Below are positions 15,623 to 27,163 of a stretch of 64,000 nucleotides of DNA, one piece after another (position 1 is the stretch's first letter; each line of letters opens with the position of its first letter). Where the stretch lies: contig NZ_LDNM01000044.1 of NCBI RefSeq assembly GCF_001028135.1, forward strand, positions 1-64,000. Reading direction: 5' to 3'. The notes beneath the pieces are model-generated. The model did no database searches. It was not told the DNA's origin and was given only the letters and a program-made list of their open reading frames with translations. Source of the DNA: Xenorhabdus griffiniae. GTDB lineage: Bacteria; Pseudomonadota; Gammaproteobacteria; Enterobacterales; Enterobacteriaceae. Both the position numbers and the translations under genes were made by a program.

Positions 15623-16312
15623 CATAATACTTTGCATACTATGCCAGATAATGCCACTCTCTTTACCATAATTACGCACACAACCCATGATCTTGTCATA
15701 GGCTTTTTCCCGGCATAATAAACTTAACTGCTGGTAGAAATTCAACGCTAAATTACGTGCTTCAGGACTGGAGAAATAATAACGACCAACACGGGTATAC
15801 AACCCTTTCAGCCCGTTAATAATCAAACCGTAAATTGGGTTTCCTGACGCAAAAGCCAGACCACGAAAAATATCATAGTCCACAGAACTGAAAGCTTCAG
15901 CGGTATCTTCCACGTTTTCTTTTTCCGCCAGAATTTCCAATGATTTTTCAGGATTGTTCTTAAATGCCGTACGGATAAAGATAGCGGCAATATTGGTTCG
16001 CACAGCTAATAAGTTGTCAATCAACTGGGGAACACGATCATGATCAAGACGCGCCAAAGTTTCCAGAATATTAAGACCGGATGTTTCCCAGAAATTATTA
16101 ACCTTGGTTGGTTTACCATGCTGAATAGTCAACCAACCATCACGGGCAAGGCGCTGCAATACTTCACGCAAGGTCGTGCGGGTGACACCGATCAATTCAG
16201 ATAATTCACGTTCTGCTGGCAGTATGGAGCCGGGTGGAAAGCGATTATTCCAAATACTTTCAATGAGATACTCTTCCGCGAAACTCGCAGGACTTTGAGC
16301 CTTAATTACCAT
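15590..16312 (-). CDS. fadR: Fatty acid metabolism regulator FadR
   Basis: A 240-residue GntR-family regulator that represses fatty acid degradation and activates unsaturated fatty acid synthesis; acyl-CoA releases it from DNA. The N-terminal winged helix is clear: [20 protein letters not shown], then [20 protein letters not shown] at about residues 29-48. The C-terminal acyl-CoA-binding helical domain follows. Start MVIKAQSP at 16312 matches FadR of other enterobacteria (239 residues); a 44-codon upstream extension is rejected. Divergent from nhaB as usual. The C-terminus ends in a tandem DNA repeat and differs from what I would expect of FadR. Confidence 0.95.
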
Positions 16313-16589
16313 AATTTTAATTATTCCAAAGCAGTTTTCTTGGCTAATAATAGCGGTTGATGATACCAGAATGTGCTTGCCCGACATAGTTACCTGGTAA
16401 ATAAACCGTGAAAGAGTGAAAGGGTTCATAAAAAATGCGATCATTGGTAGATTAATTATTCGCTAATGCCCTTAAATTGCTATCGCATTGAGCGTACAAT
16501 ACCGCTCCGATATGTTTCTATAGTGGTCGTTTTGATTTATCGCTACTTAGATTTTTTCTACATATCCACAAAGAGGAATATTAATAATA

Positions 16590-18134
16590 ATGGAAATCAG
16601 TCTCCAACGCGCAGTGGTGAAGAACTTTCTCGGCAATTCGCCGGATTGGTACAAACTGGCTATCATTGTTTTTCTGATTATCAATCCACTGGTCTACTTC
16701 TTTATCAACCCTTTTGTTGCTGGCTGGATGCTCGTCGTTGAGTTTATCTTCACACTAGCAATGGCATTAAAATGTTATCCTCTGCAACCTGGAGGATTAC
16801 TCGCTATTGAAGCAGTCATCATTGGAATGACTTCGCCAAAACAAATAGGTCATGAAATTGCCAACAATCTGGAAGTCATTTTATTGCTGATTTTCATGGT
16901 TGCGGGCATTTACTTCATGAAACAATTATTGCTGTTTGTTTTTACAAAGCTGCTACTGAGTATCCGCTCCAAGAAAATGCTGGCACTGGCATTCTGTCTG
17001 GCGAGTGCTTTCTTATCCGCTTTCCTTGATGCCCTGACTGTAATTGCTGTTGTCATCAGTATTTCAATCGGGTTTTACGCCATCTATCACCGATTCCTTT
17101 CCCACAACGGCAGTTCTGAACTGAATGATGATAAGTACATTGACAGTGAGGATAAAAGACAGACGCTGGAACAGTTCCGGGCATTTCTGCGCAGTCTGAT
17201 GATGCATGCGGGGGTTGGTACTGCACTGGGCGGCGTGATGACTATGGTTGGTGAACCCCAAAACCTGATTATTGCCAAACATGTTGATTGGGATTTTGTC
17301 ACATTCTTTATTCGTATGTCGCCAGTCACCATTCCTGTGTTTATTTGTGGCTTGCTGGTCTGTTTGCTGGTTGAACATTTTAAATTATTCGGTTACGGTG
17401 CTGAATTGCCTGAGCGTGTTCGCTCTGTTCTGGAAGATTACGACCAAAAAGCCAGTGAAAAACGTACCCGCCAAGAAAAAGCCCAGCTTGCTATTCAAGT
17501 ATTAATCGGCATCTGGCTGATTGCCGCCCTGGCTTTTCATTTGGCTGAAGTGGGTTTGATTGGCCTATCAGTCATTATTTTAGCGACTGCATTCTGTGGT
17601 ATTACCGAAGAACATGCGTTAGGTAAAGCATTTGAGGAAGCCTTACCGTTTACTGCCCTGTTGACCGTGTTTTTCTCTGTGGTTGCCGTCATTGTTGACC
17701 AACAACTGTTTACGCCATTTATTCAATTTGTCTTGCAGTCTTCACCCGCTTCACAGCTTTCCTTATTCTACCTGTTCAACGGATTACTCTCCACGGTTTC
17801 TGATAACGTTTTCGTCGGTACGGTTTACATTAATGAAGCGCTGAACGCCCTGAAAAGTGGCCTGATTTCACAACAGCAATACGAGTATTTGGCCGTTGCT
17901 ATCAATACAGGAACTAACTTACCATCCGTAGCAACCCCTAATGGACAGGCCGCTTTTCTGTTCCTGCTAACGTCTACCTTATCTCCATTGATCCGTCTCT
18001 CTTATGGTCGCATGGTAATAATGGCCTTGCCTTATACCGTTGTGATGACACTAGTGGGTCTGTTGTGTGTTGAATTCTGGTTAGTGCCAGCCACTGAATA
18101 TCTCATCAAACTTGGTTTGATCACCCCACTATAA
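16590..18134 (+). CDS. nhaB: Na+/H+ antiporter NhaB
   Basis: A 514-residue inner-membrane sodium/proton antiporter with about a dozen hydrophobic segments. Conserved parts include the N-terminus [37 protein letters not shown] (about residues 139-156), [17 protein letters not shown] (about 214-230) and [18 protein letters not shown] near 440-457. Length matches E. coli NhaB (513). GAGG lies about ten bases before the ATG. Divergent from fadR and followed by dsbB, the standard order. Confidence 0.97.
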
Positions 18135-18226
18135 TTGGAGACTGAATTTATCGTTATATCCTGCCGGATGGTGTGGTTTTGCACAATAACCCCGTTATTT
18201 ATATTGAAAAGATGGGAAGAAAAAAA

Positions 18227-18745
18227 ATGTTTCAATTTTTAAATCAGAGTTCCCAAGGGCGAGGCGCATGGATATTGATGGCGTTGACAGCTCTTATCCT
18301 GGAAGCGACAGCACTCTATTTTCAACATGTGATGCAGTTACAGCCTTGCGTAATGTGCATTTATGAGCGTGTTGCGTTGTTTGGTATTCTAGGTGCGGCG
18401 CTGCTCGGTGCAATCGCACCTAAAACGCCTTTGCGCTGGTTGGCGATCCTGTTGTGGATTTATAGCGCATGGCAAGGATTACAACTGGCATGGGATCACA
18501 CCATGATGCAGTTATACCCTTCTCCGTTTAATACTTGTGAATTTCTTGTCCAATTCCCATCTTGGTTACCGTTGAATGATTGGCTACCCTCGGTGTTTCA
18601 GGCGTTTGGGGATTGTTCGATGAAACAGTGGGAATTTTTAACGCTGGATATGCCGCAATGGCTAATTGGCATTTTTGCCGCTTATCTGCTGGTGAGTATA
18701 TTGGTGTTAGTGAGCCAATTTTTTCGGATTCAGGATAGATCTTAA
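18227..18745 (+). CDS. dsbB: Disulfide bond formation protein DsbB
   Basis: A 172-residue inner-membrane quinone reductase that reoxidises DsbA. Four membrane segments; both periplasmic cysteine pairs are present: CVMC at about 41-44, and Cys in FNTCEF (about 104) and FGDCSM (about 130). The ATG at 18227 starts [15 protein letters not shown], matching DsbB, and has GGGAAGA before it; an 18-codon upstream extension is rejected. It is the last core gene before the siderophore island. Confidence 0.96.
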
Positions 18746-18763
18746 GAGTAAAAATTTGCCCCC

Positions 18764-18787
18764 AAAGGAGTCGCTAAAGGCTCCTTT
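18764..18787 (+). terminator. dsbB terminator
   Basis: AAAGGAG (18764-18770) and CTCCTTT (18781-18787) form a 7-bp stem with a 10-base loop, 18 bases after the dsbB stop. The following sequence is moderately T-rich. Confidence 0.6.
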
Positions 18788-18849
18788 AATACCTTTCCTA
18801 TATTCAGTTCTCTATCACCATAATAAAAAACGCGATCTGGATTGCAGAT

Positions 18850-18958
18850 TATAAATCAGAAAAAACGGAAAGATAAATTTTACTGATTTATAGGCTGAAA
18901 AAATGGTAGACTTTTTAAGTCGAAAAAATATTTTATAAAACAGTTAGATAAAATTAGA
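18850..18958 (+). promoter_or_regulatory. AT-rich leader-like sequence before the solitary CRISPR repeat
   Basis: About 110 bases of A/T-rich sequence lead directly into the CRISPR repeat, as a type I-E leader does. It contains a perfect 10-bp inverted repeat, TATAAATCAG (18850-18859) and CTGATTTATA (18883-18892), and TGGTAGACTTTTTAAG near 18905. This is the expected position for the promoter of the CRISPR RNA. Assignment as leader is by composition and position only. Confidence 0.5.
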
Positions 18959-19026
18959 GTGTTCCCCGTAAGCACGGGGATAAACCGCACGGTAGCCACA
19001 ACGATTTAGTGTTTCGTTGGTGTTCC
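18959..19026 (+). CRISPR. Orphan type I-E CRISPR unit: one repeat, one 32-nt spacer, 7-nt stub of a second repeat
   Basis: A 29-nt repeat at 18959-18987 begins GTGTTCCCCG, has the hairpin core CCCCGTAAGCACGGGG (6-bp stem, AAGC loop) and ends ATAAACCG, which is the type I-E/Cas6e repeat pattern. The next 32 bases (18988-19019) have exactly the I-E spacer length. Then GTGTTCC at 19020-19026 restarts the repeat before the sequence diverges. No cas genes are in the window. A single-repeat CRISPR RNA, NilD, is known in Xenorhabdus nematophila, where it is processed by Cas6e and needed for nematode colonisation; the layout here is similar, but sequence identity to nilD is not something I can verify. 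Confidence 0.85.
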
Positions 19027-19061
19027 TACCAATTAACAACCTTATGCCACACCCGAAATTT

Positions 19062-20042
19062 CTACTGACTTTCCGCTGTAATACTTTCTTTCAGTAATGT
19101 GTGATTCACAGCATATTTTGCTTGCCATGCTTTAGGGTTGATTAAATAATGTTGCCGGAAACGTTTAGAAAAATGACTTGGGCTGGAATAACCCACTGCG
19201 GCAGCAACCTCAATGACATTCATCCCTTTCTTCAATAAATCTTCCGCTGTGGTCATACGAACGTTTTCCAGATATTGATGGAAGGTACGGAAAACAACCG
19301 CCCGGAATCCCTCTTTTAATTTCCGCTCATTCAACCCCACGGCTCTTGATAACAATTTTATAGTCCAGGGGTAATGATAATCGTTATTAATTATTTTTAT
19401 CGCATTATAAACAGCACGGCGCTGCAATCCGCTAATCACATTATATTGGCAATCATAAATTTGAGCTGCCACACAAGCGAGTATTTCTAACGCCTTTGCC
19501 TTTAAATAGACCTTTCTGACACTCCCGTTTAATTGACATTCTTCTATTTGATTCACTATCTGCATAAAGGGGGGATAGATAGGGCAAGCCATCATCAAGG
19601 CATCACTATAACTCGCGTTTTTCTCAAAACCAGCCGTTAACCTGGTAAACGATGGTAACTCCTGAGCTTCAATTTCGTTCAGAGAAAAACGGATATCGAG
19701 AATATGCCAGATTCCGCAGCCAAAGAAATTCATACCCCGCGTCATCGTAGGCGAATAAAAAAATACCATCGTTCCCGGATTAATATCTAAAACCTCGCCA
19801 TTCTCAATTGCCATTTTCCCCTTGCCACTGAGAACAAAAGCTATTGACACTGTTGGCGGTCCTTCACAATATTCTGTAAAATCTTGGCTTAATTCAAGAT
19901 GGATACGGTTGATGTGAATTCCATCAGAAAGCTCCTCGGTCAGCAATAAAGGCGTTGTGTTATTTTCCTCTGCTGGCGAATGCCTATTATTGCTATGGCC
20001 CGCCGTGAAAATTCCCAATGTCTCGCTATAGATCGTCTTCAT
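19062..20042 (-). CDS. AraC-family regulator of the siderophore cluster (YbtA-like)
   Basis: A 326-residue transcription factor. Residues about 40-210 form a ligand-sensing N-terminal domain and the C-terminal 100 residues carry two helix-turn-helix units: TIKLLSRAVGLNERKLKEGF and VIEVAAAVGYSSPSHFSKRF. This is the architecture of YbtA and PchR, which bind the ferric siderophore and activate receptor and biosynthesis genes. The ATG at 20042 is preferred because AGAGG lies five bases before it; a GTG at 20072 is weaker. It is divergent from the receptor gene and shares its Fur-box-containing intergenic region, so it is probably iron-repressed and acts on the adjacent operon. Role inferred from family and position. 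Confidence 0.88.
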   Translation of the reverse strand: MKTIYSETLGIFTAGHSNNRHSPAEENNTTPLLLTEELSDGIHINRIHLELSQDFTEYCEGPPTVSIAFVLSGKGKMAIENGEVLDINPGTMVFFYSPTMTRGMNFFGCGIWHILDIRFSLNEIEAQELPSFTRLTAGFEKNASYSDALMMACPIYPPFMQIVNQIEECQLNGSVRKVYLKAKALEILACVAAQIYDCQYNVISGLQRRAVYNAIKIINNDYHYPWTIKLLSRAVGLNERKLKEGFRAVVFRTFHQYLENVRMTTAEDLLKKGMNVIEVAAAVGYSSPSHFSKRFRQHYLINPKAWQAKYAVNHTLLKESITAESQ

Positions 20043-20187
20043 GAAATCCTCTGTAAAATTAGCATCAGACACCCATCATTTCAAAAAAAACGCTTTCCAA
20101 AATAAAAACAGCATGTTATGCGTATTAAAGACATTATTCTTTTATTTTATATAGTTATATACAGATGTGAATATCACGCAATTTATC

Positions 20188-20206
20188 ATTAATGAGAATC
20201 ATTATC
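20188..20206. promoter_or_regulatory. Fur box in the divergent regulator/receptor promoter region
   Basis: ATTAATGAGAATCATTATC matches 16 of 19 positions of the Fur consensus GATAATGATAATCATTATC. It lies between the AraC-type gene and the receptor gene, so iron-loaded Fur could repress both. Confidence 0.85.
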
Positions 20207-20289
20207 AATAGTACGTATCGCGCTATTTTTGTCCCTATCCCGTTAGCTCTTCTTTTCTATTCCAGTTAGTTTCATCAGATATGTTTCCG

Positions 20290-20322
20290 GGTTTACCACA
20301 CTTGTTTGGTTTACCACATTTG
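20290..20322. promoter_or_regulatory. Direct repeats upstream of the receptor gene, candidate AraC-protein operator
   Basis: GGTTTACCACACTTG (20290-20304) and GGTTTACCACATTTG (20308-20322) differ at one base and start 18 bp apart, about two helical turns, ending 41 bases before the receptor ATG. AraC-family activators typically bind such tandem half-sites next to the -35 region, so this is the best candidate site for the divergent regulator. Confidence 0.55.
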
Positions 20323-20363
20323 ATCTTTTTAAAACATGATTTGGAAAGGCATAAAGAGTATTT

Positions 20364-22346
20364 ATGAAAAAAAAATATGCGAAAGCGTCTGTCTTATGTT
20401 GTCTGATCACACCTGTTGTGGCCTGGGCGGAGCCTTCACCCAAAGCCACAGAAGATGTTTTGATTGTGACGGCTAACAAACGAGCAGAAGCATTAAATAA
20501 AGTTAATGGCAGCATTTTGGTAAAAACTGGCGAGGAACTTGAGCAAACGGGTATCACTCAGGTACAGGATCTTGAACGCGCTTTCCCTGGCTTACAAATC
20601 CGCTCTCGCGGTAACCGAACCTATTCAGCGACCACAATTCGGGGTATCAGTTCACCCGATTACTATTCACCTTCCATTCGCATTTATGTTGATGGTGTTC
20701 CTCAGGATCACCAGTTTCTGACACAAGAGTTAATCAATGTAGAACGTGTAGAATTATTACGTGGTCCGCAAGGCACTTTATATGGTGGCAACGCTCAGGC
20801 CGGTGTTATCAATATTATCACCCGTTCTCCGAAAGAAGGTCCCTGGCTTAACCTTTCTGGTCATTATTCCAAGTTAAAACAAGGCGGTTCCTTCAGCGGT
20901 TCAATGCCGCTTATTGAAGACATGCTTTATGGCAGCATGAGTCTACGCTGGGTAAAAGAGCCAGGACAAATTGATGCACCAAATCGCGGTGATAAAAATA
21001 TTGATGCCAGCAAAACCTGGCTCGGTAAAGGAAAGCTGACATTTGCACCAGACGATTCTCCTTTCAGCGCTGAACTTAGCTTTGCTCATGAAGATCTCAA
21101 TTCACATGAAGAGCTTTATTTAACTGACGAACAGTTCCGGCAGAAAAAATATGATGGCCCTATCCCGGATTTAACACGACGCGTCAACAGTTATGCCCTC
21201 AAAGCGGAATATGATTTTGGCAACAACGTATTAACCAGTGTCACCGCCTATCAGGATCGCGATATTTTCCGTGATTTTATCGGGGGTAAATGGAAAGAAA
21301 AACACCACGCCACAACCCAAGAGTTGCGTTTAAATTCCAGCTACTCAAATGGGATTACCCATGTTCTCGGTGGCTGGTTCTCAGATGAAACTAACAAACA
21401 TTATACTCGCTATAATGATGCGCATAACAAAATCAAAGGAAAATCGCTAGCCCTGTTCGGTGAAGTTAAATTACCCATTGCATCTCAATGGGATCTTACC
21501 CTTGGCGGACGTCTGTCACATGAAAAATCCCAGATCAATTATTCAGGATCTGACATCATGAAGATTGACGCTTTTGATAATCAGGTTTCCAGCAACGAAT
21601 TTATACCTAAAGCAGCTCTGGGCTGGCAATTGACACCTGATAGCCGTTTCTATCTCTCTGCCACCAAAGGATACAAACCGGGCGGGTTCAACAACATCGT
21701 TTCTTCCATCAATAATAGAAAGCCTTATGATACCGAAACCTCAGGCAATTATGAGTTCGGTTGGCATACCTCGTTCTTTAATAACGCAATGACACTAAAC
21801 AGTGCGGTTTACTACATCCGTTCCAAAGATAAGCAGATCTATGTTGGACCTATGGGAGGGCAATTTATCCGCAACGCCGGAAAAGCAGAAAGTAAAGGTA
21901 TTGAACTGAGCAGCCAGATTAAGCCAATGCAAGGGCTTAGACTTTCTCTGGGTGGTAGCATAGGTAAGTCAAATTTCACTGATACAACACAGGGTGTAAG
22001 TTATAAAGGCAAACGCCTGCCTTATGCACCAGATGTCATGCTTAATGCAAGTTTCGACTATCTGATTGATCAAACATTGTTACCGGGTAACCTCTATTTC
22101 AATGCCGCCACTCGCTATTATTCAAAAAGCTACTTTGATGAAGCGAATACCCTTGAACAAGGGGGATATACTCTCTATGACGCGTCACTCAGTTTAGAAA
22201 TGGATCATGGCATCAATGTCAAACTTTATGGCGAAAACTTAGGTAACAAACAGTACCGTGTCTCTAGTTTCCAGCTTATGAACGGTACGCACAGCATGAT
22301 AAGTAAGGGCTTGAATGTGGGGCTGGATGTGAGCGTTGCACTATGA
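20364..22346 (+). CDS. TonB-dependent ferric siderophore receptor (FyuA family)
   Basis: A 660-residue outer-membrane receptor that would import the ferric siderophore. A signal peptide (about residues 1-22, MKKKYAKASVLCCLITPVVA, cleavage near WAEP) is followed by a TonB box-like segment EDVLIVTANKR. The plug domain contains VERVELLRGPQGTLYGGNAQAG (about 128-149), and the beta barrel ends NVGLDVSVAL. The length and motifs resemble FyuA/Psn (673 residues) of yersiniabactin. It is the first gene of the long operon, downstream of the Fur box and the direct repeats, and its stop overlaps the next start (ATGATG at 22343). Confidence 0.92.
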   Translation: MKKKYAKASVLCCLITPVVAWAEPSPKATEDVLIVTANKRAEALNKVNGSILVKTGEELEQTGITQVQDLERAFPGLQIRSRGNRTYSATTIRGISSPDYYSPSIRIYVDGVPQDHQFLTQELINVERVELLRGPQGTLYGGNAQAGVINIITRSPKEGPWLNLSGHYSKLKQGGSFSGSMPLIEDMLYGSMSLRWVKEPGQIDAPNRGDKNIDASKTWLGKGKLTFAPDDSPFSAELSFAHEDLNSHEELYLTDEQFRQKKYDGPIPDLTRRVNSYALKAEYDFGNNVLTSVTAYQDRDIFRDFIGGKWKEKHHATTQELRLNSSYSNGITHVLGGWFSDETNKHYTRYNDAHNKIKGKSLALFGEVKLPIASQWDLTLGGRLSHEKSQINYSGSDIMKIDAFDNQVSSNEFIPKAALGWQLTPDSRFYLSATKGYKPGGFNNIVSSINNRKPYDTETSGNYEFGWHTSFFNNAMTLNSAVYYIRSKDKQIYVGPMGGQFIRNAGKAESKGIELSSQIKPMQGLRLSLGGSIGKSNFTDTTQGVSYKGKRLPYAPDVMLNASFDYLIDQTLLPGNLYFNAATRYYSKSYFDEANTLEQGGYTLYDASLSLEMDHGINVKLYGENLGNKQYRVSSFQLMNGTHSMISKGLNVGLDVSVAL

Positions 22347-23614
22347 TGCACAATACCTCACATCGCCGTCACATCTCGTTACTACTTTTGACTTTGGCGG
22401 GTGTTTACACCATCCAAAGTACCATTGGTATGTTAACGTTACAAAGCATGCCGGCATTTCTACGCAACCACGGTGTTACCCCAGATAAGATAGGGTTACT
22501 CTATCTATTGATGCTACCTTGGGCATTTAAATTCCTCTGGGCTTCCGTTGTAGAACGCTATCGCAAATCAGGTTCGGGGGATACTCACCCCCGCCGTCTC
22601 ATGCTCTGCGGCAATCTGTTAATTGTCCTGCTTTTTGGTTCAATATCATTGGCAAAACCTGCTGAACATATGCCGCTCATTATCGCGGCTCTGTTTCTGA
22701 TTACGCTGTGCCTGACTGTGGTAGATACCACCACGGATGGTCATGCTATTGACCGATTATCACCACAGCATCGCCCCTGGAGCAACGTCATGCAGGTTGG
22801 GGGCAGTTATCTGGGGGCTATGATCGGCAGCGGCCTGTTTTTATATCTTACTTCACTGTATGGCTGGCACATTGGTGCAGGCATGTTAGCTATAGCGATC
22901 CTATTAATGTCGCTGCCTGTCTTGTTCATTCGGAAAACGCAGGGGCAGGGAGAATCAAATGGGTCAAAAACGCCAAGTACAGCATCTTCAAATCTATCTC
23001 AAAAACCATCGCTAAAGGATGCATTACGCCGTACTCCGGTTAAACAAGCGCTGATGTTAATACTGTTGTGTATGATTGGGACACGCCTGTCACTCGGTAT
23101 GCTCTCCCCATTTTTAGTCGATCGCGGCGTAGACTTGACCCAATTAGGCATCATTGCTGCCAGTGGGGGGGCATTAGCCGGTTTATCCGGTGTCCTGCTT
23201 GGTGGCATCGTGGTACGTAAGTTAGGTGCCGTCCAGACATTATTGGCGGTAATGCTGCTTGAATGTCTGGTATTAGTCAGTATTTTTTGGCTTGCCCAAC
23301 AACCAGAAACTCCCCTATCCCTGCTTTCAGCCGCATACGTTTTTATTACGTTAATCACCGCCACCAAATTTGTTGCCCTGTATACCCAAATGATGTCTCT
23401 GGCGGCCGGCATACAGTCTGGTGTGGATTTTGCGTTGATGCAATCCGCAGATATGAGCATTGCGATCATCTGTTCAATACTGGGTGGATTGATTGTGACC
23501 AAAGCAAGCTATGCCTCTCTTTTCGCGCTTGCATCACTCTTCACCCTCGCAGGCTTGTTCTGGACATTACGTAAGCGCCACGATTTCCAAAAGGAAAACA
23601 CCTATGCTCAGTAA
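22343..23614 (+). CDS. RhtX/FptX-type MFS siderophore transporter (YbtX/Irp8-like)
   Basis: A 423-residue major facilitator with about 12 membrane segments. It begins with a short cytoplasmic tail, then LLLLTLAGVYTIQSTIGMLT; LPWAFKFLWASVVERY at about residues 54-69 and CLTVVDTTTDGHAIDRLSP near 127-145 are characteristic of the RhtX/FptX family, single-component inner-membrane importers for rhizobactin and pyochelin; YbtX of yersiniabactin clusters is of the same kind. It starts inside the receptor stop codon and overlaps the next ABC gene by 11 bases, so translation is coupled. Import rather than export is inferred from the family. Confidence 0.85.
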   Translation: MMHNTSHRRHISLLLLTLAGVYTIQSTIGMLTLQSMPAFLRNHGVTPDKIGLLYLLMLPWAFKFLWASVVERYRKSGSGDTHPRRLMLCGNLLIVLLFGSISLAKPAEHMPLIIAALFLITLCLTVVDTTTDGHAIDRLSPQHRPWSNVMQVGGSYLGAMIGSGLFLYLTSLYGWHIGAGMLAIAILLMSLPVLFIRKTQGQGESNGSKTPSTASSNLSQKPSLKDALRRTPVKQALMLILLCMIGTRLSLGMLSPFLVDRGVDLTQLGIIAASGGALAGLSGVLLGGIVVRKLGAVQTLLAVMLLECLVLVSIFWLAQQPETPLSLLSAAYVFITLITATKFVALYTQMMSLAAGIQSGVDFALMQSADMSIAIICSILGGLIVTKASYASLFALASLFTLAGLFWTLRKRHDFQKENTYAQ

Positions 23615-25388
23615 TGACCCTTCTGTTCAAAACTCTCCCGAGCAGCGTGCGGCTGACGCCGGTGTCATTAAGACATTGTGGGCGATGATGCGCCCATACC
23701 GCACGCTGAGTTATGTTGCCATTGCACTGGCGGTTGTTTCCGCAGGCTTGCAAATACTGCCGGCGGCAATTGCCGGTCTGATTACCCAATCTCTCTATGA
23801 CGGGCAATATGACGCCTTACTGAATTACGGCATCATGTTATTAAGCTTTACCTTTGCCGCTATGCTGACTTTCAGTGGTTCAACGTTTGTCTCCCATTTG
23901 ATCGCTGCCGATGTTCAGGCTGATATTCGTCGTCATATCAGCAATAAATTGAAGTCTGTTCCCTTGGGCTTCTTTATGCAGACTGACAGCACTGAAATAA
24001 AGAAGATGATGCTAGATGACGTCGAACAGCTTGAAGATGGTATTGCCCACATTATTCCAGAAATGTCAGCAACCTTGTTCGGCCCATTGATTGCATTGGG
24101 TGTGATGTCAGCCATTGATTGGCGATTAGCATTGGCGGCTTTTGCCCCAACTTTGGGTGCCTGCTTATTATTCATTTATATTCAGATGAAAGTTCAAACT
24201 ACGACTCAGCGTTTTTACGCCGCCCAAAATCGTATTGCTTCGACAATGGGTGAAGTTATCAACGCAATTCCTGTAGTAAAAACCTATTCAGGCGGCAATA
24301 TTGCACTACAGCGAGCAGAAGACGCATTTACCGCGCTGACGCGAATTATTGATGTTTGGATTGAGAAAGTGCAGGTTAAATCCAGCCGGTTTTTTGTGCT
24401 GTCCAGTGCTAATTTGCTGTTTGTCCTCCCTTTAGCGATCGGGTTATTTAACCGACAAGAGATCACTTTATTCGAGTTCACTTTCTTTATTCTGGCTGCT
24501 ATGGCATTCGGCAATATTGCGTCATCCATGTTCTCTGTGATGACACGTTTGCAGCAGCAAGAGGCGTTAATCACACGTTATCGTTGGCTAATGAATCAAC
24601 CTGAATTAGCGCCATGTACTCAAAGCCAGACTCCTGCCGATCATACTGTGACTTTGCATAATGTCAGCTTTTCCTATCAGGATAAGCAGGACAATGCCTT
24701 AAATAACCTCTCATTTTCCGTCCCTGCCGGCAGTTCACTCGCTCTGGTCGGCGCCAGTGGTTCTGGCAAATCCACGATAGCCAGCCTGATTGCCCGTCTT
24801 TGGGATCCTCAACAAGGTAAAATTACTGTTGGGGGAGTTGATATCCGCAACATGGATGAACCCACGCTGCGTAATAACATCTCTTTTGTGTTCCAGCGGG
24901 TGTTTCTGTTCAACGATACGATAGCCAATAATATCCGCCTGGCCCGTCCTGATGCTTCACAAACAGAAGTTGAAGCGGCGGCCCTCGCAGCACAAGCCCA
25001 TCAATTCATCCAACAGTTACCACAAGGTTACAACACCGTGATTAACCACGGTATCAGCTTGTCTGTAGGAGAAAAACAGCGTATCGCCGTTGCCGCCGCT
25101 ATCCTGAAAAACGCCCCCATTCTTGTATTGGATGAAGCCACCGCCTATGCCGATCCCGAATGTGAAAAAGAGATGCAACAAGCACTCAATGCGTTATGCC
25201 GCAATAAGACAGTAATTGTTATCGCCCATCGTCTGCCAACCACCCGTCACCTTGATCAAATACTGGTTCTGGATAAAGGACACATCGTTGAGCAAGGCAC
25301 TCATGATGAACTGGTTGCACAGCAAGGCGCGTATGCCAAACAGTGGGCAGCCTGGCGGGGGGAAAAGACCGGAACAGGAGTAAATTAA
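23604..25388 (+). CDS. ybtP: ABC transporter half-molecule, permease-ATPase (YbtP/Irp6-like)
   Basis: A 594-residue fused membrane and ATPase protein, one half of a heterodimeric exporter-fold importer of ferric siderophore. Six membrane segments occupy about residues 35-310. The ATPase has Walker A VGASGSGKST and Walker B ILVLDEATAYADP. The ABC signature is LSVGEKQRIA rather than LSGGQ, with Val replacing the first Gly of the pair, which suggests an asymmetric dimer with one weakened site. The ATG at 23604 (MLSNDPSVQ) follows AAAAGGAA and overlaps the MFS gene; upstream in-frame codons to 23511 lie within that gene and are rejected. Partner of the next gene. Confidence 0.92.
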   Translation: MLSNDPSVQNSPEQRAADAGVIKTLWAMMRPYRTLSYVAIALAVVSAGLQILPAAIAGLITQSLYDGQYDALLNYGIMLLSFTFAAMLTFSGSTFVSHLIAADVQADIRRHISNKLKSVPLGFFMQTDSTEIKKMMLDDVEQLEDGIAHIIPEMSATLFGPLIALGVMSAIDWRLALAAFAPTLGACLLFIYIQMKVQTTTQRFYAAQNRIASTMGEVINAIPVVKTYSGGNIALQRAEDAFTALTRIIDVWIEKVQVKSSRFFVLSSANLLFVLPLAIGLFNRQEITLFEFTFFILAAMAFGNIASSMFSVMTRLQQQEALITRYRWLMNQPELAPCTQSQTPADHTVTLHNVSFSYQDKQDNALNNLSFSVPAGSSLALVGASGSGKSTIASLIARLWDPQQGKITVGGVDIRNMDEPTLRNNISFVFQRVFLFNDTIANNIRLARPDASQTEVEAAALAAQAHQFIQQLPQGYNTVINHGISLSVGEKQRIAVAAAILKNAPILVLDEATAYADPECEKEMQQALNALCRNKTVIVIAHRLPTTRHLDQILVLDKGHIVEQGTHDELVAQQGAYAKQWAAWRGEKTGTGVN

Positions 25389-25390
25389 TC

Positions 25391-27163
25391 ATGGGATTAT
25401 TTCATCGTCTCCAACAACATCTGTCTGCAAAGCTACAACGGGTCTGGTTTGGCGGGTTGTTATATAAACAACTTGATACCATTGCGATTATGGCTCAACT
25501 GGCTATCGCCGCCTGGGCTATCACTCATCTGGAGGAAAATCATCTGCAAGAAAGCGGCAACGCTATGCTGCCACTTATCACGCTGACACTATTAGTTGTT
25601 TTACTGTTGCTGCGGTTCGCTTTTATGTCTCGCGCATTACGTAAACTCACCATTGCCGCTTATGGGTTGGGAATAGAAATCCGTCGCGCTTTGCTACAAC
25701 GGCTTGTCAGTATGTCCGTAGCGACAATTCGCGGATTAAGTGCCGGAAAAATAGCCCTGACGTTATCCGAAGATGTGCAATGGCAGGAAAATCAATCAGC
25801 CTATACCACCCCACAAATCACCTGCCAGATTATGATGCTGGCGCTTATCTATCTGACTTTATTCTGGTTCGACTGGGTAGTTGCTGGCTGTGCCCTGTTA
25901 GTCTTGATGGTTGGATTACTGATCCTGGGGGGTATCCGGCAAAAACTTAATGAAATACTGCGTCGGCGGGCTGCGATGATGGCTGATGTCTCCGAATCAA
26001 TCGTAGAATATGCTCAGGGCATGGCTTTTATTCGCGCAGCGGCTGCGACCACAACGGTAGAACAACGTTTTGACCGGGAAATTGAACAACTACGTGCCGC
26101 ATTCCGCCGTGGCATATTCAAAAGCATACCGTTGCTGAGTCTGTTCTACATCATTATTGATACCAGCGTGGTGGTTGGCATTCTGGCGGGAGCTTTACGC
26201 TTTAATGAAGCACTCACTCTTCCTGAGATGCTGATCACTATTCTATTGTTGTTCGCCACGATTACCCCTTTACGCGGGATCATTCCCCTGCTCAACGTGA
26301 CCGCATTGACACAAGTCGGTGAAACACATATTGCAGAAATAGAAGCGATTGCAACGCAAACTTCCGGGCCATTAGCCGCACCAAATAAATATGATGTTGA
26401 AGTTAACAACATCTCATTTAGCTACCCGGGTACTCACCAGCCCGCTATCCAGAACGTGTCATTTTATGCACCACAAGGCAGTATGACCGCGATTGTGGGG
26501 CCAAGTGGCAGTGGTAAATCCACGCTGGCCTACTTATTACTCGCTTTCTATCAACTGGATAAAGGTGAAATCCGTTTGGGTGGAAACCCTATTCATCATT
26601 ACCAGACTCAAGCGCTGTACGACACCGTCACAATGGTATTCCAGGAAACCGCACTCTTTCAGGATACTGTCGCCAACAATCTCCGTTTGGGTGATCCAAA
26701 TGCGACACAATCAGCGCTGGAACAGGCTGCCCGCCTCGCCAGAATTCACGATACAATTATGGCATTACCGCAAGGGTACGATACACCTTTAGGTGTGGAT
26801 GGCGGTACGTTATCTGGCGGGGAGCGCCAACGGCTCGCCATTGCGCGCGCGATCCTAAAACAGTCCCCGGTGCTATTCCTGGACGAGGCAACTGCATCAC
26901 TGGATCCCGAAAATGAGCAATTGATACAAGAAGCCTTTGATTCTCTCACTCAGGATAAAACCGTTTTTGTTATCGCTCATCGTCTGAGCACGATAACCCG
27001 TGCTGATCAAATATTGGTCATGGATCATGGAACCCTCTGTGATAGCGGTACACATGATGAATTACTGAAACGTTGTCCACTTTACCAATCCCTTTGGAAA
27101 AATCACCTTGGCTCAGAAGAGCATTGGCACTTACATCCCAGTATTCACTTAAATAAGGTGTAA
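25391..27163 (+). CDS. ybtQ: ABC transporter half-molecule, permease-ATPase (YbtQ/Irp7-like)
   Basis: A 590-residue partner of the preceding transporter, again with an N-terminal six-helix membrane domain and a C-terminal ATPase. Walker A is VGPSGSGKST, the signature is a canonical LSGGERQRLA and Walker B is VLFLDEATASLDP, so this half carries the intact catalytic sites. It begins two bases after the stop of the previous gene, with GGAG upstream of ATG at 25391. Together the pair corresponds to YbtPQ, which are needed for yersiniabactin-iron use. The next gene follows after 47 bases. Confidence 0.92.
   Translation: MGLFHRLQQHLSAKLQRVWFGGLLYKQLDTIAIMAQLAIAAWAITHLEENHLQESGNAMLPLITLTLLVVLLLLRFAFMSRALRKLTIAAYGLGIEIRRALLQRLVSMSVATIRGLSAGKIALTLSEDVQWQENQSAYTTPQITCQIMMLALIYLTLFWFDWVVAGCALLVLMVGLLILGGIRQKLNEILRRRAAMMADVSESIVEYAQGMAFIRAAAATTTVEQRFDREIEQLRAAFRRGIFKSIPLLSLFYIIIDTSVVVGILAGALRFNEALTLPEMLITILLLFATITPLRGIIPLLNVTALTQVGETHIAEIEAIATQTSGPLAAPNKYDVEVNNISFSYPGTHQPAIQNVSFYAPQGSMTAIVGPSGSGKSTLAYLLLAFYQLDKGEIRLGGNPIHHYQTQALYDTVTMVFQETALFQDTVANNLRLGDPNATQSALEQAARLARIHDTIMALPQGYDTPLGVDGGTLSGGERQRLAIARAILKQSPVLFLDEATASLDPENEQLIQEAFDSLTQDKTVFVIAHRLSTITRADQILVMDHGTLCDSGTHDELLKRCPLYQSLWKNHLGSEEHWHLHPSIHLNKV

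What the first reader, a model, noticed from the sequence alone, without database searches (positions are those of the whole stretch)
18959..19026. Solitary type I-E CRISPR repeat with one 32-nt spacer, NilD-like
A full 29-nt I-E repeat, a spacer of the exact I-E length and a 7-nt start of a second repeat follow a leader-like AT-rich region, with no cas genes nearby. Xenorhabdus nematophila has a known orphan CRISPR RNA (NilD) with this minimal layout, made with Cas6e and needed for nematode colonisation through its spacer. This locus may be the same gene or another regulatory crRNA, or a decayed array.
Basis: partly seen in the sequence, partly recalled or inferred. Interest (0 to 1): 0.78.

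Follow-up and report, generated by a model that had tools for sequence, protein, structure and literature searches.

The report
Remnant of a deleted CRISPR array
A bacterial virus-defence memory array next to the gene dsbB has been cut down by a deletion to one repeat and one spacer, an ordinary kind of decay already described at the same place in a close relative.

Summary
In detail: a perfect 29-nt type I-E repeat (18959-18987), a 32-nt spacer (18988-19019) and 7 nt of a second repeat (19020-19026), behind a well-preserved CRISPR leader. The site, between dsbB and an araC-type gene, carries leader-linked I-E repeats in 8 of 30 Xenorhabdus genomes (up to 98 repeats). One deletion, from nt 8 of repeat 2 to 34 nt past the last repeat (measured on strain BG5), explains the anatomy. 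The genome (4,182,327 bp, 230 contigs) fits strain BMMCB (4,183,779 bp, 231 contigs), for which PMC11566119 reports no dsbB array; in X. griffiniae ID10 that paper calls the same array a one-repeat remnant. Interference genes, cas6e included, lie on another contig; cas1 keeps only about 50 N-terminal residues of its reading frame and no cas2 is found, so the array cannot regrow by its own system. The spacer occurs in no other of 30 genomes, and phage, plasmid and IMG/VR searches gave no credible target. It is not at the place, and has not the spacer, of the one isolated unit in the genome that I take for X. nematophila. A crRNA may still be made; a NilD-like regulatory role is not supported, though not excluded.

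The parts
18828..18958 (+). CRISPR leader, well preserved
   Evidence: Aligns to leaders of other Xenorhabdus arrays; no consensus promoter was found in it
18959..18987 (+). single full type I-E repeat with intact hairpin; expected Cas6e cut before ATAAACCG (cut position recalled from the E. coli system)
   Evidence: Exact sequence; same sequence as repeats of the dsbB-linked array of strain BG5; hairpin in predicted fold
18988..19019 (+). leader-proximal spacer, 32 nt
   Evidence: no credible target
19020..19026 (+). first 7 nt of the second repeat, cut off by the deletion
19027..19061 (.). outer part of the array trailer, joined to the cut repeat
   Evidence: Homology to the flanks of G029 and G005 starts at window 19028; TACCAATTAAC lies 34 nt after the last repeat in BG5
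18173..18745 (+). dsbB, upstream neighbour
   Evidence: ORF; protein found in 30 of 30 genomes of the genus; the name follows PMC11566119 for this site, no family search was made
19062..20072 (-). AraC-type regulator, convergent downstream neighbour
   Evidence: ORF; found beside dsbB in 9 of the 30 stretches held; the name follows PMC11566119, no family search was made

Best explanation
It is the leader end of a decayed type I-E CRISPR array, the dsbB-linked 'array 2' of the X. griffiniae group. A deletion ran from nt 8 of the second repeat to 34 nt beyond the last repeat (measured on BG5) and left the leader, repeat 1 and the leader-proximal spacer (inferred from comparison with relatives). 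The array is frozen: cas1 is broken and no cas2 was found (shown on this draft). Most likely the leader still drives some transcript, Cas6e can cut in the one repeat and leave an 8-nt handle plus spacer, and the 3' end, without a second hairpin, is set by transcription end or trimming (all inferred). Such an RNA could at most guide Cascade against one unknown invader; I expect no present function that selection maintains.
For: Arrays at the same place behind the same leader in 7 other genomes: 98 repeats in BG5, 63 in G017, 59 to the contig end in IM139775, 18 in X. griffiniae VH1, 10 in X. kozodoii, 4 in X. thuongxuanensis, 1 plus a degenerate one in G029 (degenerate repeats counted). Flank homology begins at window 19028 in G029 and G005 and 19030 in G015, which has no array. 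Cut inside repeat 2. Cas1 and Cas2 families found in 17 and 19 of 30 genomes, in neither case in G000. A one-repeat remnant at the same site is described in X. griffiniae ID10 (PMC11566119, section 19 read).
Against: No relative shows the pre-deletion array with this spacer, so the ancestral state is inferred. The leader agrees with 47 of 47 invariant columns, which a long-dead locus need not keep; it fits a recent deletion or remaining use. A hairpin over spacer and junction is more stable than most shuffles, unexplained.
Confidence: 0.9

Rival explanations
1. A retained regulatory crRNA gene that works like NilD: a single Cas6e-processed RNA whose spacer pairs with a gene or transcript of the bacterium and alters its expression.
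For: Intact repeat hairpin and well-preserved leader; intact-looking cas6e and Cascade genes in the genome.
Against: Spacer in 1 of 30 genomes; no second site in the own genome for its first 20 nt within 3 mismatches (the reversed control pattern had one); only full-length or near-full-length pairing was tested, so short seed pairing is not excluded. The other one-unit remnant at this site, G029, has a different spacer. In the predicted fold the spacer pairs with the junction.
Confidence: 0.05
2. A repeat-mimicking RNA anti-CRISPR (Racr), a solitary repeat unit of a mobile element.
For: One full repeat without a second full one.
Against: Racrs are described on viral and plasmid sequences (PMC10651486, abstract and passages); this unit has an array leader and lies at a chromosomal array site shared with relatives.
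Confidence: 0.02
3. An assembly artefact: a longer array collapsed in a draft genome.
For: Draft of 230 contigs.
Against: A collapse joins identical sequence; here 7 nt of a repeat are joined to a point 34 nt beyond the last repeat as measured on BG5, with no shared sequence seen. If it is BMMCB, reads were 300 x 300 bp at 232x (PMC4505129, passages), longer than the 68-nt element.
Confidence: 0.02

Closest known systems
Array 2 (nhaB-dsbB site) of Xenorhabdus griffiniae ID10 (PMC11566119, section 19)
   Same: Same chromosomal site; one clear left repeat and one spacer; called a remnant there.
   Different: ID10 is said to keep a degenerate right repeat; here only 7 nt of repeat 2 remain. G029, which fits that description, has another spacer.
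dsbB-linked arrays of Xenorhabdus sp. BG5, X. griffiniae VH1, sp. IM139775, X. thuongxuanensis, X. kozodoii
   Same: Leader, type I-E repeat and position; BG5 has the same repeat sequence.
   Different: 98, 18, 59 or more, 4 and 10 repeats against one here.
NilD CRISPR RNA of Xenorhabdus nematophila (Veesenmeyer et al. 2014; not read, recalled)
   Same: Single crRNA unit in the same genus; Cas6e encoded in the genome.
   Different: The candidate unit in G013 lies elsewhere, has another spacer, has a full-length degenerate second repeat and shows no match to this leader. No expression or colonisation data here.
Racr, RNA anti-CRISPR (PMC10651486, passages)
   Same: One full repeat without a second.
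   Different: Not on a mobile element; has an array leader and a spacer of standard length with the start of repeat 2.

Membership tests
Type I-E CRISPR array | I-E repeat of 29 nt with hairpin | tested here: met
Type I-E CRISPR array | Spacer of about 32 nt and a leader of the family | tested here: met
Type I-E CRISPR array | At least two repeats | tested here: not met
   One full repeat plus 7 nt; hence a remnant, not an array
Type I-E CRISPR array | I-E interference genes in the genome | tested here: met
   cas3, cse1, cse2, cas7, cas5, cas6e on C163
Type I-E CRISPR array | Adaptation genes cas1 and cas2 | tested here: not met
   cas1 fragment only, no cas2
NilD | Same place in the genome as the isolated unit of X. 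nematophila | tested here: not met
   G013: unit at C2:881837-881926, dsbB at C2:2506626-2507165 without repeats; identity of G013 and of the unit inferred
NilD | Same spacer | tested here: not met
   Window spacer absent from G013 within 3 mismatches; different sequences
NilD | Cas6e-dependent small RNA | not testable with these tools
   Only the gene is shown
NilD | Role in nematode colonisation | not testable with these tools
   Needs a mutant and nematodes
RNA anti-CRISPR (Racr) | Solitary repeat carried by a virus or plasmid | tested here: not met
   Lies between dsbB and an araC-type gene at an array site shared with relatives; window 18900-19060 has no match in phage records
RNA anti-CRISPR (Racr) | Inhibits the host system | not testable with these tools
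   Needs an interference assay

The most novel reading that the evidence does not exclude
The deletion turned an immune array into a single-guide RNA gene that is now kept because its one spacer regulates a gene of the bacterium, as proposed for NilD, with the spacer-trailer hairpin standing in for the second repeat.
Probability: 0.04. Interest if true: 0.6.

Novelty: new member of a known kind. Interest (0 to 1): 0.17.

Why it matters
Little in itself. If the genome is BMMCB, it amends a published account (PMC11566119, section 19): the dsbB site is not free of CRISPR but holds a leader-repeat-spacer remnant, casD is present, and cas1 as well as cas2 is damaged. The dsbB array is now seen cut to one unit in two genomes with different spacers (the window's and G029), which warns against reading one-unit CRISPR loci of Xenorhabdus as nilD.

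Tried and rejected
Rfam over 18700-19300: no family. Consensus scan of 18740-19200: one promoter-like site, downstream of the unit (shuffles average 1.3), and two terminator-like sites, both on the minus strand; so neither a promoter nor a terminator of the unit is shown. Window 18900-19060 in phage records: no match. Spacer in phage records: 16 records, best E about 3, at most 20 of 32 nt; in plasmids: 6 records, best E about 3, at most 25 of 32 nt at 88%; in IMG/VR: 0 for each of three patterns. I treat these as no credible target; exact-pattern scans miss diverged ones.

A possible shared spacer: searches show an 80% match over 69-70 nt (repeat included) in the 63-repeat array of G017. Checked: that spacer is the best of 244 spacers from six dsbB-linked arrays, with an alignment score of 7; 6 of 200 shuffled spacers did as well, and 9 of 60 other spacers have as good a best partner. 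I dropped it as weak; it is not within 3 mismatches.

Hairpin over spacer and junction (18991-19031): 8 of 1000 shuffles as stable for that stretch, 17 of 1000 for 18988-19035, 225 of 1000 for the spacer alone, and 15 of 800 nearby 41-nt windows as stable. The stretch was chosen after seeing the fold, so I give it little weight.

nilD paper: not held. Searches 'NilD, Xenorhabdus, CRISPR' and 'Xenorhabdus nematophila, CRISPR RNA, colonization' listed 9 papers each; passages of three (PMC11566119, PMC10484321, PMC5709968) do not give its sequence or layout. What I say about NilD beyond that is recall.

Full report
Observation. The window holds GTGTTCCCCGTAAGCACGGGGATAAACCG at 18959-18987, a 32-nt spacer at 18988-19019 and GTGTTCC at 19020-19026, followed by TACCAATTAAC. 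The repeat is the only match within 3 mismatches in 64 kb, and none arose in 100 shuffles. It is not chance.

Surroundings. Upstream is dsbB (ORF 18173-18745), downstream and convergent an AraC-type regulator (19062-20072). The stretch 18828-18958 is a CRISPR leader. Of 29 loci compared, 26 align to 18828-18987 over at least 110 nt at 74-97% (two of them one and the same place), two over short stretches and one not. In the alignment of the window with 17 of them it agrees at 47 of 47 invariant and 31 of 33 nearly invariant leader columns. The 411-nt query 18700-19110 has some match in 23 of 60 related genomes, own genome included, from two of 31 genera; not all of these are leader matches: the only match listed for G015 is to the right flank, and those for G007 cover little more than the repeat.

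The site in relatives. DsbB is found in 30 of 30 genomes of the genus. In the stretches held (up to 1.5 kb on each side), 8 of 30 have this leader with I-E repeats beside dsbB; 22 have not, and in three of these (L170, L175, L183) the contig ends within about 620 nt of the gene. Repeats at the site, degenerate ones included: 98 in Xenorhabdus sp. BG5, 63 in G017, 59 up to the contig end in sp. IM139775, 18 in X. griffiniae VH1, 10 in X. kozodoii, 4 in X. thuongxuanensis, one clear repeat and a degenerate one in G029, one in the window. In G029 an open frame that looks to me like an insertion-sequence transposase follows; I did not search it.

The junction. Homology of the right flank begins at window 19028 in G029 and G005, and at 19030 in G015, which has no array here. 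In BG5, TACCAATTAAC lies 34 nt after the last repeat; G029 and G005 show a similar trailer behind what looks like the rest of a repeat. The window lacks that trailer piece and everything from nt 8 of repeat 2 on. One deletion explains this. The spacer left is the leader-proximal one, by the known polarity of adaptation the latest acquired. I saw no shared sequence at the two ends, which speaks against an assembly collapse.

The machinery. On G000:C163, on one strand, lie cas3 (916 aa), cse1 (539), cse2 (183), cas7 (345), cas5 (257) and cas6e (222 aa as scanned). Each scores above the cut-off of at least one NCBIfam model of its family; the full-length Cas3 model and one of the two Cse1 models stay below theirs. 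The 113-aa frame next to cas6e matches only positions 2-51 of the 269 of Cas1e, 51 bits against a cut-off of 215.6. Alignment to BG5 shows two stretches missing in G000: 544 nt inside cas1 and about 500 nt that hold cas2 (with positions). By Pfam search cas6e is in 20 of 30 genomes, G000 included; Cas1 in 17 of 30 and Cas2 in 19 of 30 (one of them a weak partial match), in neither case G000. Interference is thus possible, adaptation not. The cas-linked array has 7 repeats at regular spacing, the leader-proximal one with a changed 3' end (ATAAATTT), and 518 nt further two degenerate ones.

Spacer. It is found at its own place only, in 1 of 30 genomes, with up to 3 mismatches and also when positions 6, 12, 18, 24 and 30 are free. 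Its first 20 nt have no second site in the own genome within 3 mismatches; the reversed control pattern has one. Phages, plasmids and IMG/VR gave no credible target. The most similar of 244 spacers of six relatives' dsbB-linked arrays lies in G017 and is not beyond chance. Lack of a known target is common for spacers and says little about function.

Which organism. G000 has 4,182,327 bases in 230 contigs; PMC4505129 (abstract and one passage) gives 4,183,779 bp in 231 contigs for BMMCB. PMC11566119 (sections 10 and 19 read in full; passages; supplements not seen) says that BMMCB lacks casD and cas2, lacks the arrays at eda and dsbB, and has a second array of two spacers among phage genes. G000 lacks cas2 and has such an array among phage genes on C18. 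I therefore take G000 to be BMMCB, which that paper finds likely conspecific with the X. bakwenae type strain SF857. Two of its statements then need amending: a one-unit remnant is at dsbB, and casD is present. G029 fits its account of ID10 (remnant at dsbB, two cas6e genes), but this is not shown.

NilD. The paper is not held. From recall: a single crRNA of X. nematophila that needs Cas6e and is conditionally needed for nematode colonisation. The pair's spacer differs from the window's, BLAST of the window's 16001-22500 against its surroundings finds only the repeat, and the dsbB site has no repeats. The window locus is not that element.

Mechanism. Inferred: transcription from the leader, one Cas6e cut that leaves ATAAACCG plus spacer, and a 3' end made without Cas6e. 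In the predicted fold of 18959-19060 the repeat hairpin forms and the spacer pairs partly with the junction (z = -2.38, 3 of 200 shuffles as good). That would rather hinder than help targeting.

Verdict. A decayed array, of a kind already described at the same site in a close relative. What is new is a detail; interest is low.

Noticed in passing
G000:C18:16484-16788 (L150 14485-14789), outside the window: Mini CRISPR-like array among phage tail-type genes: three repeats of the form ATGTTCCCCGCNNNNGCGGGGATAAACCG, differing in the stem from the genome's own repeats; two 32-nt spacers; the fourth repeat runs straight into CTTTTTTT like an intrinsic terminator. The last spacer differs at 6 of 32 positions from the Roi/antirepressor-like gene just upstream. 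Two IMG/VR patterns found only one contig, of the same length and with the same spacers. PMC11566119 mentions a two-spacer array of BMMCB among phage genes, at a contig edge; here it lies about 5 kb from the contig end. A phage-borne array against related phages is possible.
   Followed up: partly
G000:C163 (L149 8594-8969), outside the window: cas1 has lost an internal piece (544 nt against BG5) and cas2 is missing (about 500 nt), while the interference genes look intact.
   Followed up: yes
G000:C163:87571-88513, outside the window: The leader-proximal repeat of the cas-linked array ends in ATAAATTT instead of ATAAACCG, and 518 nt separate the regular repeats from two degenerate ones.
   Followed up: no
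L184 (G013:C2:881837-881926) and L186 (near G013:C2:1814239): The isolated repeat-spacer-degenerate repeat unit of G013 has a near copy, with the start of its first repeat missing, downstream of an array near 1814 kb. If it is nilD, there are two copies of most of it.
   Followed up: no
window 18991-19031: Spacer and deletion junction together form an imperfect palindrome, GGTAG...CTACC around CAACGA...TCGTTG; it might have shaped the deletion end or be chance.
   Followed up: partly
window 19062-27163: AraC-type gene, then ORFs that read by eye as a TonB-dependent receptor, an MFS transporter and two ABC transporters; PMC11566119 labels araC, fyuA and mfs near this array in relatives. It looks like a siderophore uptake cluster.
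   Followed up: no
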